Below, in pieces: positions 45,845 through 55,110 of a stretch of DNA of 64,000 nt. This DNA comes from Planctomycetes bacterium MalM25. GTDB taxonomy: Bacteria; Planctomycetota; Planctomycetia; Pirellulales; Lacipirellulaceae. Under the pieces are notes generated by a model that ran no database searches, was not told where the DNA came from, and worked only from the letters and a program-made list of their open reading frames with translations. The first letter of the stretch is position 1, and each line of letters starts with the position of its first letter. The DNA is taken from NCBI GenBank assembly GCA_007745835.1, contig CP036424.1:1325001-1389000 (forward strand), written 5' to 3'. Position numbers and translations under genes: made by a program.

Positions 45845-47743
45845 ATGCCCGCCGACCGCCCCGATTCCACGCCCGCTGAGGGTATCCGCAACGTGGCGAT
45901 CATCGCCCACGTCGACCACGGGAAGACGACCCTCGTCGACCAACTGCTATACCAGTCGGGCCGCTACCGCCAGGCGGAGCTGGACAAACTGGCGGGGGGG
46001 CAGCACGGCCTCGTCTTCGATTCGAACGACCTGGAGCGTGAGCGCGGCATCACGATTTTCAGCAAGAACTGCGCGATCGAGTACGAGTCGCTCGCCGGCA
46101 AGCGGCTGCGGATCAACCTGATCGACACCCCGGGCCACGCCGACTTCGGGGGCGAGGTCGAGCGGGTGCTGATGATGGCGGACGGCTGCCTGCTGCTGGT
46201 CGACGCCTTCGAGGGCCCGATGCCGCAGACGCGGTTCGTGCTGCAGAAAGCGCTCGCGCAGGGGCTGCGGCCGATCGTTGTGGTGAACAAGATCGACCGC
46301 CCCGACGCCCGCCCCGACGAGGTGGTCACCGAGGTCTTCGACCTGTTGGTCGATCTCGGCGCCGAGGACGACGTGCTCGACTTCCCGGTGGTGTTCGCCT
46401 CGGGCAAGGCGGGCTTCGCCAGCCTGTCGCCGACCGAGCGGCCCGAGGGGATGCGCGACCTGCTCGAGCAGATCGTCGAGCACGTCCCCGCGCCCAGCGG
46501 CAAGCCGGACGAGCCGACGCAGATGATGGTCACCACGATCGAGTACTCCGACTACGTCGGCCGCATCGCCGTGGGCCGGGTGCTCGCCGGTTCGGTCACC
46601 GACCGCCAGCGCGTCGCGGTGATCGACCGCGACGGGGAGGTCACCCAGCAGCAGATCAACCAGCTCTTCACCTTCGAGGGGCTCGGCAAGGTCGAGACCG
46701 AGCGGGTCGATTGTGGCGACCTGTGCGCGATCGTCGGGCTCGACCCGATCGGCATGGGCTACACGGTCTCCGCCGTCGAGACGCCGCGCGCCGCCGCCGC
46801 GGTGAAGATCGACGAGCCGACCATCAACATGACGTTCCGCGTGAACGACGGCCCGCTCGCCGGGCGCGAGGGGGACCACGTCACCAGCCGCAAGATCGGC
46901 GAGCGGCTGGATAAGGAGCTGCGGAGCGACGTCGCCCTGCGTGTCGCCCCGGGCGAGACGATGGAGCAGTACCGGGTCTCCGGCCGCGGGCTGATGCACC
47001 TGGGCATCCTCATCGAGAACTTCCGCCGCGAGGGCTTCGAGCTCTGCGTCGGCAAGCCGCAGGTCGTGACCCGGCAGGAGGAGGGCAAACGGCTGGAACC
47101 GGTCGAGCTGCTCGTGGTCGATGTGCCCGAGGAGTTCGAGAACGCGGTCATGTCGCTCGTCGGCGATCGGCGGGCCCAGGTCTTGAAGATGGGCAAGAAG
47201 ACCAGCGGCGCCGCGTTCACGCACCTGGAGTTCTCGATCCCGTCGCGCTCGCTGATCGGCCTGCGGACTCGCCTGCTGGCCGCCACGCAGGGCAACGCGG
47301 TGGTGCACCACACGGTGCTCGGCTTCGAGCCCCCGCGGGGCGACGTGAAGCTCCGCCCGAACGGGGTGCTGATCGCCCACGAATCGGGCCAGGCGACCGC
47401 CTACGCGATGGACGCGCTGGACGACCGGGGCGTCTTCTTCATCAAGCCGGGCGACACCGTCTACGAGGGGCAGGTCGTCGGCGAGAACTGCAAGTCGGGC
47501 GACCTCGTGGTCAACGTGGTGAAGGGCAAGAAGCTCACCAACATGCGGGCCGCCGGCAAGGACGATAACAACGCCGTCCGCCCGCCACGCGACATGTCGC
47601 TCGAGGCCTGCCTCGAGTACATCGACGACGACGAGCTGGTCGAGGTCACCCCGACCGGCGTCCGCATGCGGAAGATCCTGCTCAAGGAATCCGACCGCCG
47701 CCGCGTGGCGCGGCGTGGCGCGGCGGCGGCCACCTCGGCATAA
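45845..47743 (+). CDS. typA: Ribosome-associated GTPase TypA/BipA
   Basis: 632 residues, a translational GTPase that binds the ribosome and supports assembly and stress growth. G motifs: IAHVDHGKTTLVDQLL (G1), RERGITIFSKN (G2 region), LIDTPGHADFGGEVERVL (G3), VVNKIDRPDARP (G4) and VVFASGKAGFASL (G5). The C-terminal TypA-specific domain is complete: GRGLMHLGILIENFRREGFE, LIGLRTRLLAATQGNAVVHH and LTNMRAAGKDDNNAVRPPRD. Single rightward gene, divergent from the PAS-GAF-REC gene. The C-terminal Arg/Ala tail is longer than in enterobacteria. Confidence 0.97.
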   Translation: MPADRPDSTPAEGIRNVAIIAHVDHGKTTLVDQLLYQSGRYRQAELDKLAGGQHGLVFDSNDLERERGITIFSKNCAIEYESLAGKRLRINLIDTPGHADFGGEVERVLMMADGCLLLVDAFEGPMPQTRFVLQKALAQGLRPIVVVNKIDRPDARPDEVVTEVFDLLVDLGAEDDVLDFPVVFASGKAGFASLSPTERPEGMRDLLEQIVEHVPAPSGKPDEPTQMMVTTIEYSDYVGRIAVGRVLAGSVTDRQRVAVIDRDGEVTQQQINQLFTFEGLGKVETERVDCGDLCAIVGLDPIGMGYTVSAVETPRAAAAVKIDEPTINMTFRVNDGPLAGREGDHVTSRKIGERLDKELRSDVALRVAPGETMEQYRVSGRGLMHLGILIENFRREGFELCVGKPQVVTRQEEGKRLEPVELLVVDVPEEFENAVMSLVGDRRAQVLKMGKKTSGAAFTHLEFSIPSRSLIGLRTRLLAATQGNAVVHHTVLGFEPPRGDVKLRPNGVLIAHESGQATAYAMDALDDRGVFFIKPGDTVYEGQVVGENCKSGDLVVNVVKGKKLTNMRAAGKDDNNAVRPPRDMSLEACLEYIDDDELVEVTPTGVRMRKILLKESDRRRVARRGAAAATSA

Positions 47744-47876
47744 CCGGCGTGACCGGACCGGATCGCTCGGGTCTTGCGCTTCGGTCTCCCGTGGTCGCCA
47801 TCGTGAGCTAGCCTTGCGCGAAGGCGCTGCGGCCACCTGGGAGCCGCCGCCGGGAAACGTTGGGGCGTCGCTCGCC

Positions 47877-48674
47877 ATGACACGTCTGCGCACACGGGCC
47901 GCTTCGCGCGGCATCTCGAAAGTCGAACTGCTCGCTTGCCTGCTGGCGGTGGCCGGCGGGGTCTGGATCGGCGCTTCGTATGTCGGTCTCAACCTGAACC
48001 AAGCGGCCTACGACGCGCTCGACGAGACCGAGCTGCTCACAAGGATCCCCGAGGATTGGCGCCCGCCGAACCCGGAGTGCCCCGACGGCGACTGCCCGAG
48101 CGAAGAGGAGATCCGCAGCGGGCAAGTCCAAGAACTCCGCTCACAACTCGACGGCCTCCGCAGCGAGGTCGATCTGATCACCGGCGGCGTCGAGCCCCTG
48201 CCGCAGGGCGAGTCGACGCTCACCGACGAGCTCCGCGCCGCCCGCGACACCACGCTCCCCTACTGGAGCGCCCTCCGCGAGGTGGTCACCGAGGTGACCG
48301 CCCTGCAAGCCCGCGTCGCCCCGCTCCGTGAGGCCGATCAGTACGCCCGGGGCCTGTCGGTCCGCCGACGGGCGATGGAGTACGGCCTCGAGGCGGTCCG
48401 TCTGCTCGATCCCGAGGGGGTCGACCCCCAGGCGGTCGAGGCCGCGGGGCGGGTCGCCGAGTGGTTCGAGCACGGCGCCGAGACCATCGGATCGGCGGTC
48501 GAGATCCGCTCGCGTCAGCAGGTCGGCGGCCGGTCGGTGACCGGCGTCGAGCTCTGGCGGAGCCTGGAGGTCGACTTGGCGAAACGGACCGAGCTGGTCC
48601 GCCGCAAGACCCGCGAAACGGCCGGTTACCTCACCAGCCGCTATTTCGTCGAGTTTCCACTACTGGACCTTTGA
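47877..48674 (+). CDS. Membrane-anchored coiled-coil protein of unknown function
   Basis: 265 residues from the ATG at 47877. N-terminal anchor SKVELLACLLAVAGGVWIGA after a basic start (RLRTRAASRG), then an acidic spacer with three Cys-containing residues (NPECPDGDCPSEEE), and a long helical region with heptad-like spacing (VQELRSQLDGLRSEVDLI, LREVVTEVTALQARVAPLRE). The rest is helical and charged, ending SRYFVEFPLLDL. No known family is recognised. The gene lies between typA (133 bp upstream) and the DLF-repeat/SHD1 gene (134 bp downstream), and all three read rightward. It may be an envelope structural protein. Confidence 0.75.
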   Translation: MTRLRTRAASRGISKVELLACLLAVAGGVWIGASYVGLNLNQAAYDALDETELLTRIPEDWRPPNPECPDGDCPSEEEIRSGQVQELRSQLDGLRSEVDLITGGVEPLPQGESTLTDELRAARDTTLPYWSALREVVTEVTALQARVAPLREADQYARGLSVRRRAMEYGLEAVRLLDPEGVDPQAVEAAGRVAEWFEHGAETIGSAVEIRSRQQVGGRSVTGVELWRSLEVDLAKRTELVRRKTRETAGYLTSRYFVEFPLLDL

Positions 48675-48808
48675 TCACTCGGGGCGTTTATTGCTGCTGC
48701 ACCCGGCCCAAGCTAGTATGAATGGTTGGGCGCAGACGCGCTATCTCGCCCGAAGCCTCGATTTCCCCCCGCCTGACACCGGGCGTTGACCCGCTACCCG
48801 AAGCCACG

Positions 48809-50377
48809 ATGAAGAACCTCGCCTACCGCTTCTTGACCTGCAGCCTGGCTCTGCTGCTCGCGATCAACACGGCCGCCGCCGGCCAATGGATCCGCTCCTG
48901 CTGGGACGCGCCCGCCTGCGGCCCGATGGTGGCTTGCGAAGCTTCGTGCGAGCCGGTCGCCTGCTGTCCCGTTGAGACCTGCTGCGAGCCCGCCCCCTGC
49001 GAGCCGGTCGGTTGTGGCGGCTGTGGCGCCGTCGAAGCCGTGAGCGACTGCGGATGTGGGTCGGTCGGCAGCGAGACGGTTGTCTACGAATCGACCCCCA
49101 CCCCGGCCGAAGCGGTTACACCGCCGGCGCCGACCGAGGTCTACGAACCGGCCCCCGCCGCGGCGTTCGGCGGCGGTTTCCGCAGCGACAACGCCGCACC
49201 GGTCGAAGCCCCCGCCGAAGCCGCTCCCAACGGCGACTGGAACGCCGGCTTCGAAGAGCCCGTCGCTGAGCCCGCCCCCGCGCAGCCCGCCGAGCAACTG
49301 TTTGTTGAACCCGCCCCGGTCGAAGAGCCGGCGGACGACTTGTTCGCGGATCCCGCTCCCGCGCCGGCCGAGCCGATCGCCGCGCCCGCCGTGGCCGCCC
49401 CGGTTGAGGAGCCCGCCGACGACCTGTTCGCCGAGCCGGCGGCCGAAGAACCGATGGAGGAAGACACGCTGTTCGGCGCTCCCGTTGAGGAAGAGCCCGC
49501 CGAAGACCTGTTCGCCGAGCCCGCCGCGGAACAGCCGACGGATGAGGACACTCGGTTCGAGGCCCCCGCCGAAGAGCCGGCCGACGACCTCTTCGCTGAG
49601 CCCGCCGCTGAAGAACCCGCTGACGATCTGTTTGGCGCTGAGGAAGAGCCGATGGAGGACGAGGGCGATCTTTTCGCTGAACCCGCCGCGGAGGAGCCCG
49701 CCGAGGACCTGTTCAGTGAGCCCGCGGCCGAAGAGCCCGCTGACGATCTGTTCGGCGCCGAGGAAGAGCCGATGGAAGAGGACGCCGGTGATCTGTTCGC
49801 CGAGCCGGCCGCCGAGGAGCCGGCCGACGACCTCTTCGCCGAGCCCGCCGAGGAAGAGCCCGCCGACGACTTGTTTGGCGCCCCCGAGGAGGAGGCCGCG
49901 GACGATCTCTTTGGCGCTGAGGAAGAAGAGCCCATGGAGGATGACGGCGGTCTGTTTGACGAGCCCGCCGAAGCCGTCGAAGACGCGGCCGATGACCTGT
50001 TTGCACCAGAGGAGGCGGAGCCGACCGACGCCGATGCCGAAGGAGACTTGTTCGACTTCGGCTCGATCCTCCGCGAGCCGGGCGGTGTCGACAGCGCGGC
50101 GCAGCGCACCTGGGTCGATAACTCGGGACGCTTCTCGACGGTCGGCCGTCTGTTGGCGATCGACGGCAGCGTCGTCCGCCTGGTCAAGAAGAACGGCGCC
50201 GTGGCGACCGTGCCCCTGTCGCGCCTGAGCCAGTCGGACCTCGAGTTCGTCAGCCGCCAGTCGGTCGCGATGCACCAGGCCCGCGAGCACGCCATCGCCC
50301 GCGGCGCCACGCCCGGCGACGACGCGAAGCAGGCCCGCACCGCCGACGAGCTCCCGCTCCGCACCGCTCAGCTTTAA
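48809..50377 (+). CDS. Exported Cys-rich / acidic DLF-repeat / SHD1-domain protein
   Basis: 522 residues from the ATG at 48809. Regions in order: signal peptide (MKNLAYRFLTCSLALLLAIN); a cysteine-rich segment of about 55 residues (from SCWDAPACGPMVACEASC to DCGCGS) that could form disulfides; a Pro/Ala/Glu linker; an acidic array (about 185-415) of roughly 17 units of the form EEPADDLFAEPAA, 14 with the motif DLF; and a C-terminal SHD1-like domain (RTWVDNSGRFSTVGRLLAID, LVKKNGAVATVPLSRLS). SHD1 is the short beta-rich fold of yeast Sla1 that binds NPFxD motifs and is common in planctomycete exported proteins. Function unknown. It ends in a 4-bp convergent overlap with the HemY-type gene. Confidence 0.85.
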   Translation: MKNLAYRFLTCSLALLLAINTAAAGQWIRSCWDAPACGPMVACEASCEPVACCPVETCCEPAPCEPVGCGGCGAVEAVSDCGCGSVGSETVVYESTPTPAEAVTPPAPTEVYEPAPAAAFGGGFRSDNAAPVEAPAEAAPNGDWNAGFEEPVAEPAPAQPAEQLFVEPAPVEEPADDLFADPAPAPAEPIAAPAVAAPVEEPADDLFAEPAAEEPMEEDTLFGAPVEEEPAEDLFAEPAAEQPTDEDTRFEAPAEEPADDLFAEPAAEEPADDLFGAEEEPMEDEGDLFAEPAAEEPAEDLFSEPAAEEPADDLFGAEEEPMEEDAGDLFAEPAAEEPADDLFAEPAEEEPADDLFGAPEEEAADDLFGAEEEEPMEDDGGLFDEPAEAVEDAADDLFAPEEAEPTDADAEGDLFDFGSILREPGGVDSAAQRTWVDNSGRFSTVGRLLAIDGSVVRLVKKNGAVATVPLSRLSQSDLEFVSRQSVAMHQAREHAIARGATPGDDAKQARTADELPLRTAQL

Positions 50378-51792
50378 GAAGCTATCCGCTCAAGCACCCG
50401 CTCGGCCGCTTGCTCGCCCGAGTGGACGCACTGCGGCACGCCGACGCCGCGGTAGGCGGCGCCGGCCAGTTCGACGCCGAGCGACTGCGCCCGCGCTTCG
50501 ATCCGCTGGACGAGGCCCAAGTGCCCCACGTGGTACTGCGGCATGCGCCGCGGCCAGCGGGCGATGCGCGTCAGGCTCGCTTCGCCGGTGAGGCCGACCA
50601 GTTCGCCGAGCTCCTCGCGGACCAGGCTCACGAGCCCGGCGTCGTCGCGGTCGGCGAGCTCTGGCTGCAGCGCCCCGCCGACGAACGCTCGGATCAGCAC
50701 CCGCCCGTCCGGCGTGCGGCCGGGGAACTTGTAGCTGGCGAAGCTCGCGGCGATGAGCCGGCGGCCCTCGACCTGGGGCACGACGAAGCCGAAGCCGTCG
50801 ATCGGCCGCGTGACCTGCCCCGCCTCGACGACGAGGCAGACGACCGAGCAGCCCGCGTACTCGACCTGACTCAGCAGGTCGGCAAGCTCCGTGTCGGCCG
50901 TTCGCAACGCCTGAGCCGCGGGCGCCGCGGGCAGGGTGACGATCAGCTCGTCGTAAACGCCCCGGTCCTCGCCCCCTTCGCCGGCCAGTCGCCACGCGCC
51001 GTCGGCGTCGCGCTCGATCGTTTGGACGCTCGCGTTGGTGGCGATCCGCTCCTTCGGTAAGCGAGCCTCGATCGCGTCGACGAGCTGCTGCATCCCCGCG
51101 CGGGGCGCGACGAACAGCCCGTAGCGGGCGCCGCTCTCGCTCCGCTCGGCGGTCGCCGAACGCTTCGACAGCGCTGCCCTCGTGAGGCTGCCGTGCTCGC
51201 GCTCCTGGCGGACGAACTGGGCCATCGTGGCGTCCATGCTCAGCCGCTCCGGGTCGGCCGTGTAGATGCCCGCCACGAGCGGCTGCACGAGCCGCTCAAA
51301 GGCTTCCTTCCCCAGCCGCCGACGGGCGAACGCGGCGACGCTCTCGTCGGCCTTGTCGCGGCGCGTCGGCACGAGCCCCTCGGCCGCCAGCCGCGCCTTG
51401 CCCAGCGGGCTGAGGATCGGCGAAGCGAGGATCGGCCACGCCCGCTGCGGCGACATGAGGACAAAGCCCTCGGGCACCCGGCGGATGCGGCCGTTGCTGA
51501 CGACCAGCGCTCGCCGCCGGGCCGGATCGGTCGGCAACAGCTCCTCCTCGAGCCCGACCCGCCGGCAGAGATCGGTCGCCCACGGGTCGCGCGTGAGGAA
51601 GTTATCGGCCGACAGCTCGATCAGACAGTCCCGGTCGCGAACCGTCTCCAGCACCCCGCCGACGCGCGGGCTCGCTTCGAGCAGCCGCCAATCGACCGCC
51701 ACGCCGGACTCCTCAAGCCGCAACGCGGCGGCGAGTCCGGTGATTCCGCCGCCGAGGATGGCGACGCGTCGTTGGGGAGGCGAATCGGGCAC
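50374..51792 (-). CDS. hemY: Protoporphyrinogen/coproporphyrinogen oxidase, HemY-type
   Basis: 472 residues from a GTG at 51792. FAD-dependent flavoprotein that oxidises a porphyrinogen with oxygen. The FAD-binding start is RRVAILGGGITGLAAALRLE, then RVGGVLETV, LSADNFLTRDPWATDLCRRV and the family landmark LVQPLVAGIYTADPERLSMD. A C-terminal PQYHVGHLGLVQRIEARAQ and VGVPQCVHSGEQAAERVLE complete the FAD site. The name covers both protoporphyrinogen- and coproporphyrinogen-type enzymes; which applies is not readable here. It joins hemH at 9280 as the second late haem gene. Converges with the SHD1 gene by 4 bp. Confidence 0.92.
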   Translation of the reverse strand: MPDSPPQRRVAILGGGITGLAAALRLEESGVAVDWRLLEASPRVGGVLETVRDRDCLIELSADNFLTRDPWATDLCRRVGLEEELLPTDPARRRALVVSNGRIRRVPEGFVLMSPQRAWPILASPILSPLGKARLAAEGLVPTRRDKADESVAAFARRRLGKEAFERLVQPLVAGIYTADPERLSMDATMAQFVRQEREHGSLTRAALSKRSATAERSESGARYGLFVAPRAGMQQLVDAIEARLPKERIATNASVQTIERDADGAWRLAGEGGEDRGVYDELIVTLPAAPAAQALRTADTELADLLSQVEYAGCSVVCLVVEAGQVTRPIDGFGFVVPQVEGRRLIAASFASYKFPGRTPDGRVLIRAFVGGALQPELADRDDAGLVSLVREELGELVGLTGEASLTRIARWPRRMPQYHVGHLGLVQRIEARAQSLGVELAGAAYRGVGVPQCVHSGEQAAERVLERIAS

Positions 51793-52661: not shown

Positions 52662-53609
52662 CTACCAAGACCCGCCGCGGTGGGACCAGCCCCATTGGCT
52701 GTCGGGCCTTCCGCCGAAGCGCCATTCGAGGCCGCAGGTGAGCGAGAAGTTGTTCAGGGTGGACGTCTCGTTCTGGCCGAGCGCCAGGTTGTCCATGAAC
52801 TCCAGCCGCCACGCCAAGTGACGCCGCAGCTGGTACTTGAGGCCGACGCCGAAGGGGATCGTCATCAGCATGTCGTGCTGGGTGCGGCCCAGGTCGTTGG
52901 TGTACTCAATGTCCGTCAGGCCGACGCCAATCCGCCAGTACGGCCGCATCCGCGAGTCGCCCCACGGGTAGTACAGCACGCTCAGGTCGGTGACCAGCAG
53001 GTTGTCGTCCGACTCGACCGCGGTCTGCAACGTGTTGAGCAGCTCGGGCGTCGACCAGGCGACGCGCACCTGCGAGCCCCAGTAGTGGTCCCAGTCCCAA
53101 CCGAGGCCGATCGCGCCGATCAGGTCGTTGTTCGCTCGGACGTTGGCCGCGGGTCGATCGCCCATCAGCAGCAGGCCGCCGTCGAGCGACAGGGCGTAGG
53201 GGCGGTTGAGCCAGCTCGTGCCCCGCAGCGGCGTGCCCGGGCCCATCGCGCGACCGTGGGTCGAACTGTGCCGGAGGTCGCACTGCCGAAGCAGCCAGTG
53301 ACGCTCGCGCGGGCCGTCGTGCCAGGGACCACCGACCGAGTCGCCGCAGCCCGGGCCGTAGCAGCCGTCGGGCGCTGTCTGGCCCGGGTCCATACGGGGT
53401 CCGAAGCCGATCACGCCCCCCTCGTCGGCGGCGGGGGCGTTCCAGGGCGGTTGCTGCGTGGGGGCGGAAGCGTTCGCCGGGGCCCGCAGCGGGTTGGCGG
53501 GGACGCTCTCCGCCGTCGTCTGCGCGCAGGCGAACCGTGGGGTCAGAAAGCCCAGCAACGCGGCGAGGGCCAGCGTCGTGAGTCGGCGTGATGAGGGGGC
53601 TCCATCCAT
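52662..53609 (-). CDS. Outer-membrane beta-barrel-like exported protein
   Basis: 315 residues from the ATG at 53609. Signal peptide (LTTLALAALLGFLTPRFACA) then a low-complexity Pro/Ala part with a Cys pair (DGCYGPGCGDS). From about residue 130 there are alternating hydrophobic strands typical of a small outer-membrane barrel: YALSLDGGLLLMGDRPAAN, LIGAIGLGWDWDHYWGSQ, VTDLSVLYYPWGDSRMRPY, MLMTIPFGVGLKYQLRRH and LAWRLEFMDNLAL, ending with Phe-Gly-Gly and SHRGGSW. Such opacity-like proteins have no enzymatic role. Leftward and separate from the DUF1573 gene by 89 bp. Confidence 0.75.
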   Translation of the reverse strand: MDGAPSSRRLTTLALAALLGFLTPRFACAQTTAESVPANPLRAPANASAPTQQPPWNAPAADEGGVIGFGPRMDPGQTAPDGCYGPGCGDSVGGPWHDGPRERHWLLRQCDLRHSSTHGRAMGPGTPLRGTSWLNRPYALSLDGGLLLMGDRPAANVRANNDLIGAIGLGWDWDHYWGSQVRVAWSTPELLNTLQTAVESDDNLLVTDLSVLYYPWGDSRMRPYWRIGVGLTDIEYTNDLGRTQHDMLMTIPFGVGLKYQLRRHLAWRLEFMDNLALGQNETSTLNNFSLTCGLEWRFGGRPDSQWGWSHRGGSW

Positions 53610-53698
53610 AAGCGGGGCGGAGCGTAGAGCGTTGGGCCCGACCTGGCAAGATCGACGCGCAGGCCCCCGCCGATAGCGGCGCCAGCGGTTGGGCCGCC

Positions 53699-54766
53699 TC
53701 AGCGCGCCGAGACCGCGTGGCTGTCGGGGGTGGTCTCCGTCGACGAGCCCTGATCGGCCGCGGTGGCGGACGAGGGGGTCACGGTGGCGTAGGCGGTGCT
53801 CGTGGTGGTGAAGCTGTCGCCCAGGTCGGTGCGGATGACGATCGGCGCCTTGAGCCGGCGGGCCTCGCCACCGGAGACGAAGCGGAGCGTGACGATCTGC
53901 TTGGTGCCGGGGGTGTCGGCGGTCTCGAACTCGAAGCACTCGTCCTCGCACTTCACGTCGGTAACCCGGAACGGGCGTTTGCCGCGGACGAGCAGCCGCT
54001 TGGTGACCGTTTCACCTTGGGGGACGTCGCCCAGCACCAGCGTCGCGGGGGCGACCGTCAGCTCGGGGCGGACTTCGGCGGTCACGCCGATCGGGATCCG
54101 CGGGTTCGAGCGGTCGTTGGTGATCAGCACCAGCTGGGTCTTCAGGAAGCCGGCGGGGGTCGATTCGCGGAGCCGGACGTTCAGGTCGTAGATCACGCGG
54201 CCGCGGCCGCTCCGCTCGCGTTCGATCAGCTCGGCCTCCAGGTGGTCGTAGCTGGAGCGGACGTCGTCGATCTTCCAGCCGGAACGGCCCGCGTAGCTGA
54301 CCGAGACCTTCTTCTCCTGGAGCGTGCCCTGATCGAACTGGCCGAAGTCGGCCGAGCCGGGCTCGAAGACCACGTCGCCGCGGATGTTGCCCTTCACGCG
54401 GACCTGCACCTGAGCCGGGTACGGCTTGGTGATCTGCACCGTCAGCGTGGCGCCGTGGTCGCCCGTGAAGGTGCGGGTGTTGAACTTCGCGACGATGTAG
54501 CCCCGCTCGTGCGTCTTGATGACGGGGTGCTCGAGCGAGGCGCTCGTGCAGCCGCAGCTGGAGCGGACGCTGCCGAGGACGACGTCCTCCTTGTAGATGT
54601 TCTTGACCGGGAACCTGAAGATCGTGTCCGAACCGCGGGCGACGACGCCGAAGTCGTGCTCCTTCTCGTCGAACATCTTGCGGGCCCAGTCCTGGGCGGT
54701 CGCGACGCTGGCGAGCGAGGCGAACACGAGGGTGGCGACGACGGTCTTGGCGAGAGGGCGGAACAT
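53699..54766 (-). CDS. DUF1573 exported protein
   Basis: 355 residues from the ATG at 54766; the signal peptide (KTVVATLVFASLASVATAQ) fixes this start. The DUF1573 immunoglobulin-like unit is clear at the N-terminus: KEHDFGVVARGSDTIFRFP, VRSSCGCTSASLEHPVIKTH and YIVAKFNTRTFTGDHGATLT. Further immunoglobulin-like segments follow to about residue 330, and the last 25 residues are Ser/Thr-rich low complexity. Planctomycetes and Bacteroidetes encode many; function unknown, perhaps structural or binding at the surface. Cysteines SCGCT and CEDECFEF could form disulfides. Confidence 0.92.
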   Translation of the reverse strand: MFRPLAKTVVATLVFASLASVATAQDWARKMFDEKEHDFGVVARGSDTIFRFPVKNIYKEDVVLGSVRSSCGCTSASLEHPVIKTHERGYIVAKFNTRTFTGDHGATLTVQITKPYPAQVQVRVKGNIRGDVVFEPGSADFGQFDQGTLQEKKVSVSYAGRSGWKIDDVRSSYDHLEAELIERERSGRGRVIYDLNVRLRESTPAGFLKTQLVLITNDRSNPRIPIGVTAEVRPELTVAPATLVLGDVPQGETVTKRLLVRGKRPFRVTDVKCEDECFEFETADTPGTKQIVTLRFVSGGEARRLKAPIVIRTDLGDSFTTTSTAYATVTPSSATAADQGSSTETTPDSHAVSAR

Positions 54767-55110
54767 GACGGGGGCGCCTCGCGTGGGGGGCTTCAAGTCG
54801 ATTGGCAGGGTGTCGGCGCGTTGCGCCCTTACAGCTTGTGGCAAAAGTAGCTTCTTGGGCAATCCGCATCGGGCTGTGAGGCGATTTTCGTCGCGAAATA
54901 TCACCGCGTAGACCGGGCGCCCCTGAGGATTGGAACGATTGAGACGCCGCGCGCGCACGCCAAATCTCCCAAATCGCCCCTCCGACCCGGCCGCCGACGC
55001 TTTTCACCCCGGGGGGGCGGTGCGACCGAAGCTAGCGGCGCGTATAACCGGCGTCTGACGAGCGGTCGACGCCGCGAAACGCCACAGAGCCCTTCCCCCG
55101 AATCGCCACT
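54767..55110. other. Divergent intergenic region between DUF1573 gene and tyrA
   Basis: 344 bp, no credible gene. TATAAC near 55039-55044 could be a -10 box for tyrA, but no good -35 is seen. Confidence 0.45.

What the first reader, a model, noticed from the sequence alone, without database searches (positions are those of the whole stretch)
48809..50377. SHD1 protein with 14 DLF motifs and a Cys-rich head
One exported protein joins a signal peptide, a segment of many Cys, an acidic array with 14 DLF motifs, and an SHD1-like domain. In eukaryotes SHD1 binds NPFxD and DLF-type short linear motifs are bound by endocytic adaptors, so a protein carrying both a motif array and a motif-reader-like domain in planctomycetes is striking. 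The analogy to trafficking is speculative, since the protein is predicted to leave the cytoplasm; self-assembly of the array by SHD1 is a simpler possibility.
Basis: inference. Interest (0 to 1): 0.6.

Follow-up and report, generated by a model that had tools for sequence, protein, structure and literature searches.

The report
Exported bacterial SHD1 motif-array protein
A single-copy exported protein of Pirellulales bacteria joins a cysteine-rich head, a disordered acidic chain of repeated Asp-Leu/Pro-Phe motifs and a genuine yeast-Sla1-type SHD1 domain, so it may carry both a docking domain and its own docking sites, probably as a cell-envelope scaffold rather than as part of any endocytosis.

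Summary
ORF 48809-50377 (+) encodes 522 aa: a Sec-type signal peptide, 13 Cys in residues 31-83, 14 DLF motifs (0.17 expected after shuffling), and a C-terminal SHD1 domain (Pfam 43.9 bits). The domain's AlphaFold model (core pLDDT 93-98) matches yeast Sla1 SHD1 (2hbp) first among 350,542 PDB chains. It is not an isolated oddity. About 60 relatives across the order Pirellulales share the same order of parts, and 58 of 61 carry D[L/P/I/F/M]F motifs. Sampled SHD1 proteins of other architecture carry no DLF. Motif number varies (0-22), but the last motif, next to SHD1, keeps its Phe in at least 90% of sequences. In some Pirellulaceae many repeats read DPF, a weak variant of the NPFxD signal that SHD1 reads in yeast. 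The array-family SHD1 has its own conserved residues (Arg447, Arg/Lys464, Arg472). Modelling showed no internal motif docking; binding is untested. I favour an envelope scaffold: disulphide-bonded heads, flexible motif chain, SHD1 caps that bind motifs in cis or trans. An endocytic role is not supported. I found no description of this family in the papers I could search.

The parts
48809..50377 (+). CDS of the SHD1 motif-array protein, 522 aa plus stop
   Evidence: array and head single copy in the genome
48809..48880 (+). signal peptide, residues 1-24, predicted cut AAA|G
   Evidence: inspection of sequence; the same n/h/AxA pattern recurs in relatives
48899..49057 (+). Cys-rich head, residues 31-83, 13 Cys, ending SDCGCG
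   Evidence: relatives average 9.6 Cys in this part versus 0.25 in the array; no Pfam family
49337..50053 (+). acidic Pro/Ala/Glu array with 14 DLF motifs, residues 177-415; predicted disordered
   Evidence: C-terminal half modelled, pLDDT 50-60 and no secondary structure
50045..50053 (+). last DLF motif (residues 413-415), its Phe kept in >=90% of relatives
50054..50086 (+). conserved lead-in DFGSILREPGG, confidently modelled together with the domain
50093..50260 (+). SHD1 domain, residues 429-484
   Evidence: Pfam 43.9 bits; 2hbp match by sequence and fold
50261..50374 (+). C-terminal helix end and tail ending LRTAQL (many relatives: RTAQR)
47715..48674 (+). upstream neighbour conserved in several genomes, 319 aa, one N-terminal TM-like segment, no family
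50374..51792 (-). convergent neighbour, flavin amine oxidoreductase (HemG/protoporphyrinogen oxidase-like)
   Evidence: next to the array gene in most same-family genomes
52662..53951 (-). outer-membrane beta-barrel protein (PF13505), conserved in the neighbourhood of several relatives
53699..55003 (-). open frame of a DUF1573 protein, conserved in the neighbourhood of several relatives

Best explanation
An exported cell-envelope scaffold protein. The Cys-rich head forms disulphides, within or between chains. The acidic, disordered chain presents many D-[L/P]-F motifs. The C-terminal SHD1 domain binds such motifs, with the last conserved motif acting as a cis cap or pseudo-ligand and the others available to SHD1 domains of other copies, so that the protein cross-links into a multivalent network in the periplasm or wall. 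Shown: export-type signal sequence, head, array, SHD1 fold, conservation across the order, single copy. Inferred: disulphides, motif binding, network, location.
For: SHD1 fold and Sla1 match. Same architecture in about 60 relatives; D[L/P/I/F/M]F in 58 of 61, and no DLF in 19 sampled SHD1 proteins of other architecture. In the own genome the array occurs only in this gene, so no separate bearer of DDLF arrays was found. Last motif Phe >=90% conserved and the segment directly after it ordered with the domain. Array-family SHD1 has distinct conserved positions R447, L459, R/K464, R472, and all 31 proteins with >=4 motifs keep at least 3 of 4 basic positions (447, 460, 464, 472) while all 10 that have lost two or more have <=3 motifs. 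Array repeats become DPF in some Pirellulaceae, a known weak variant of the yeast NPFxD signal (PMC7889276). Cys confined to the head.
Against: AlphaFold leaves internal motifs undocked, though a monomer run without peptide is a weak test. The acidic +2/+3 residue of NPFxD is not enriched family-wide. Overall charge of the domain does not differ clearly from other SHD1 (p=0.07) nor track motif number. The basic-position/motif association rests on few clades (mainly two genera) and was found after looking. Three relatives have no motif. Sla1 itself has Glu or other residues where this family has Arg.
Confidence: 0.37

Rival explanations
1. SHD1 is only the anchor: it binds another envelope component (a wall peptide or an outer-membrane protein), while the D-[L/P]-F array recruits a different, unidentified reader.
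For: SHD1 occurs in many planctomycete proteins without DLF, so its usual ligand cannot be this array; secreted bacterial SH3-fold domains are proposed to bind wall peptides (PMC5906684); an outer-membrane beta-barrel gene lies nearby in several genomes.
Against: Array-family SHD1 has its own conserved residues, and in the own genome the array is not found in any protein without SHD1.
Confidence: 0.3
2. The array is a sticker-and-spacer polymer that coheres through its Phe residues (FG-repeat-like, [D/G]-L-F-G) without any SHD1 recognition; head and SHD1 merely anchor the two ends.
For: Gly follows Phe in 56% of cases (12.8-fold); one orthologue reads GLFG nearly throughout (L030); Pfam Nucleoporin_FG matches 10 of 36 relatives, and the whole query above cut-off.
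Against: The Pfam match is most likely compositional; a strongly negative spacer should oppose cohesion; Asp at -3 and -2 is as conserved as the Gly, which stickers alone do not need.
Confidence: 0.15
3. The array is a low-complexity acidic spacer or divalent-cation binder in which DLF drifted and was copied by repeat slippage.
For: Imperfect DNA tandem periods; motif number varies widely, even within the genus (14, 14, 13, 3).
Against: Nine codon spellings for 14 DLF and the same D-D-L-F-G context in 61 relatives with diverged spacers; Phe of the last motif >=90% kept.
Confidence: 0.13
4. A trafficking or endocytosis-like adaptor related in function to Sla1.
For: Same domain family and similar motifs.
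Against: Predicted export; order-restricted; evidence against endocytosis-like uptake in planctomycetes (PMC5394234); none of Sla1's other domains are present.
Confidence: 0.02

Closest known systems
Yeast Sla1 SLA1 homology domain 1 (PF03983, PDB 2hbp)
   Same: Domain sequence (E=0.0012), predicted fold (rmsd 1.2 A over 52 residues; VIA Z 7.8 over 59), W, D, G and L-S-x-x-D core residues; NPFxD/DPF-class ligands known
   Different: Bacterial and predicted exported; own motif array in the same chain; Arg where Sla1 has Glu (447); none of Sla1's other domains; motif binding not tested
Other planctomycete SHD1 proteins (N-terminal or internal SHD1)
   Same: Same domain, same genomes
   Different: No DLF array, no C-terminal placement, different SHD1 residues at 447, 459, 462, 464, 472, 478
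Eukaryotic DPF/NPF/DLF endocytic motif arrays (for example AP180, epsin, Eps15; from general knowledge)
   Same: Disordered acidic chain with repeated D-x-F motifs
   Different: Those are cytoplasmic and bind clathrin/AP-2; this is a bacterial protein predicted exported
FG nucleoporins (PF13634)
   Same: Phe-Gly spaced in disordered low-complexity sequence; Pfam match in some relatives
   Different: Strongly acidic spacers, Asp-rich motif, signal peptide; match probably compositional

Membership tests
SHD1 domain family (PF03983) | profile match over the curated cut-off | tested here: met
   43.9 bits vs 23.7; 36 of 36 relatives scanned match
SHD1 domain family (PF03983) | SHD1 fold as in Sla1 2hbp | tested here: met
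   pLDDT 93-98; Foldseek rank 1; VIA Z 7.8, next 5.6
SHD1 domain family (PF03983) | binding of NPFxD-type peptides | not testable with these tools
   needs purified domain and peptide; monomer fold gave no internal docking
Sla1-type endocytic adaptor | other Sla1 domains (SH3, SHD2) in a cytoplasmic protein | tested here: not met
   only SHD1 and a Nucleoporin_FG match; signal peptide by inspection
NPFxD ligand class | Asn/Asp-Pro-Phe core | tested here: inconclusive
   D-L-F in the query (Leu for Pro); DPF in some relatives, 11% Pro at -1 overall
NPFxD ligand class | acidic residue at +2/+3 | tested here: inconclusive
   12 of 14 in the query, but 150 of 341 family-wide, about background
FG nucleoporin repeat (PF13634) | profile match not explained by composition | tested here: inconclusive
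   37.0 bits vs 32.2 on the whole protein, under cut-off on the C-terminal 240 aa; 10 of 36 relatives at E<=0.001

The most novel reading that the evidence does not exclude
Probability: 0.27. Interest if true: 0.75.

Novelty: new variant of a known kind. Interest (0 to 1): 0.52.

Why it matters
SHD1 domains are common in planctomycetes, yet I found no paper that gives them a function there. This family puts a candidate ligand next to the domain in the same chain, conserved over a whole order, so the ligand of bacterial SHD1 becomes a direct peptide-binding test. If it binds, it would suggest a role for a single-copy envelope protein of a group whose cell wall is poorly understood and give a bacterial parallel to a fungal recognition system.

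Tried and rejected
Endocytic adaptor: export signal, no other Sla1 domains and published evidence against endocytosis argue against. Charge complementarity of domain and array: no clear signal. Internal motif docking by AlphaFold: none seen. Cys head: no Pfam family; the one weak own-genome match (E=0.02) overlaps longer plausible ORFs on the other strand and is probably chance. Other DDLF arrays in the genome: none; 9 of 24 exact DDLF/DDFF-[G/A]-type DNA hits lie in this gene and the rest are scattered. NCBIfam: nothing useful. The structural paper on Sla1 SHD1 (Mahadev 2007) is not held, so its contact residues could not be mapped. A first domain-charge comparison with badly framed windows was redone on an alignment.

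Full report
WHAT IS THERE. The ORF at 48809-50377 (+) encodes a 522-residue protein. Residues 1-24 look like a Sec signal peptide with an AAA|G cut (by inspection; no predictor available). Thirteen Cys fall in residues 31-83, fourteen DLF motifs between residues 177 and 415, and Pfam SHD1 at 429-484 with 43.9 bits. Shuffling the array gives 0.17 DLF on average, 3 at most, in 20,000 trials; 14 are present, written with nine codon spellings.

SHD1 IS REAL. phmmer against PDB sequences returns one hit, Sla1 SHD1 2hbp, E=0.0012. An AlphaFold model from 61 relatives has pLDDT 93-98 over the core, four strands and a C-terminal helix. Foldseek ranks 2hbp first of 350,542 chains (rmsd 1.2 A over 52 residues, 33% identity), and VIA-align gives Z 7.8 for 2hbp, with the next entry (Hfq) at 5.6. 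W435 and D477 are invariant over all array-family and other SHD1 sequences compared.

A FAMILY, NOT A ONE-OFF. SHD1 occurs in 52 of 59 relatives' genomes and in none of 14 control genomes. A profile of the extended domain finds matches in 150 of 196 genomes of the order, many of them to the SHD1 core alone; outside the order the hits listed are essentially to the core only. Named carriers are Pirellulales: Aeoliella (Lacipirellulaceae), Stieleria, Rhodopirellula, Rubripirellula, Roseiconus. Reading the ORFs shows the same order of parts in about 60 relatives: signal peptide, Cys head (mean 9.6 Cys, against 0.25 in the array), Pro/Ala/acid array, C-terminal SHD1. D[L/P/I/F/M]F occurs in 58 of 61. 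Nineteen sampled SHD1 proteins of other architecture have no DLF. Motif number ranges from 0 to 22 and differs within the genus (14, 14, 13, 3 DLF), but the Phe of the motif just before SHD1 is kept in at least 90% of 61 aligned sequences. Around Phe the family consensus is D-D-[L 59%, P 11%]-F-G-x-P. In some Pirellulaceae many repeats are DPF (L090: 13 DPF and 9 DLF).

NEIGHBOURHOOD. The gene converges on a HemG-like oxidoreductase gene in most same-family genomes, and an outer-membrane beta-barrel gene and a DUF1573 gene follow in several. An upstream 319-residue protein with one TM-like segment is also conserved in several. These neighbours suggest, but do not prove, an envelope role.

DOES SHD1 READ THE ARRAY? 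For: yeast SHD1 reads NPFX(1,2)D, and DPFxD, NPF and DPF are weaker versions of that signal (PMC7889276), close to D-[L/P]-F. Array-family SHD1 differs from other SHD1 of related genomes at a small set of positions (R447 where the others mostly have Glu or Thr, L459, R/K464, R472, N438, L478). All 31 proteins with four or more motifs keep at least three of four basic positions, and all ten that lost two or more have at most three motifs (Fisher p=0.0003). This last result is post hoc, and the ten come from few genera, so I give it little weight. The array is single-copy in the genome. Against: AlphaFold on 240 residues leaves the internal motifs disordered (pLDDT 50-60) with only the segment around the last motif rising (block mean 81). 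The acidic +2/+3 residue is not enriched across the family (150 of 341). Domain charge shows no clear link to the array. The question is open.

MECHANISM. My preferred reading is an exported scaffold: heads joined by disulphides, flexible motif chains, SHD1 caps that bind motifs in cis (the conserved last one) or in trans. The planctomycete envelope has long been described as having a proteinaceous layer (PMC3422733), though peptidoglycan has since been found in several species (PMC5394234). Steps shown: parts, fold, conservation. Steps inferred: disulphides, binding, network, location. Rivals are SHD1 as anchor to another envelope ligand, an FG-like cohesive polymer, and a plain acidic spacer. 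An endocytic adaptor is unlikely: the protein is predicted exported, none of Sla1's other domains are present, and endocytosis-like uptake was not confirmed in planctomycetes (PMC5394234).

NOVELTY. Full-text searches found no study of SHD1 function in planctomycetes; one paper mentions SHD1 in passing as part of secreted bacterial proteins (PMC5906684). Subscription papers were not searched, so an earlier description cannot be excluded. The domain family is known; the combination with head and motif array is, as far as I can tell, a new variant.

Noticed in passing
window 48794-50290, - strand: A 498-aa open frame runs antisense through the array gene; typical of high-GC repeated coding sequence and probably not a gene.
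   Followed up: no
window 47715-48674 (+): 319-aa protein, N-terminal segment GISKVELLACLLAVAGGVWIGASYVGLNL (pilin-like look) then probably helical; conserved upstream of the array gene in three named-collection loci at 33-39% identity, no Pfam family.
   Followed up: partly
L030 and L013 (same gene, G027): The orthologue's repeats read GLFG nearly throughout (DDGLFGAPADEP), like FG-nucleoporin GLFG repeats.
   Followed up: partly
L090 (G179), L123: Pirellulaceae relatives in which part or most of the array is D-P-F or another D-x-F rather than D-L-F.
   Followed up: partly
L047 / L017 (G034): An SHD1 domain joined to a thioredoxin-like domain (by eye) in an exported-looking protein, another SHD1 architecture in the same group.
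   Followed up: no
L125, L100, L104: Relatives with Cys head and SHD1 but no D-x-F motif, possible losses useful for testing what the array does.
   Followed up: partly
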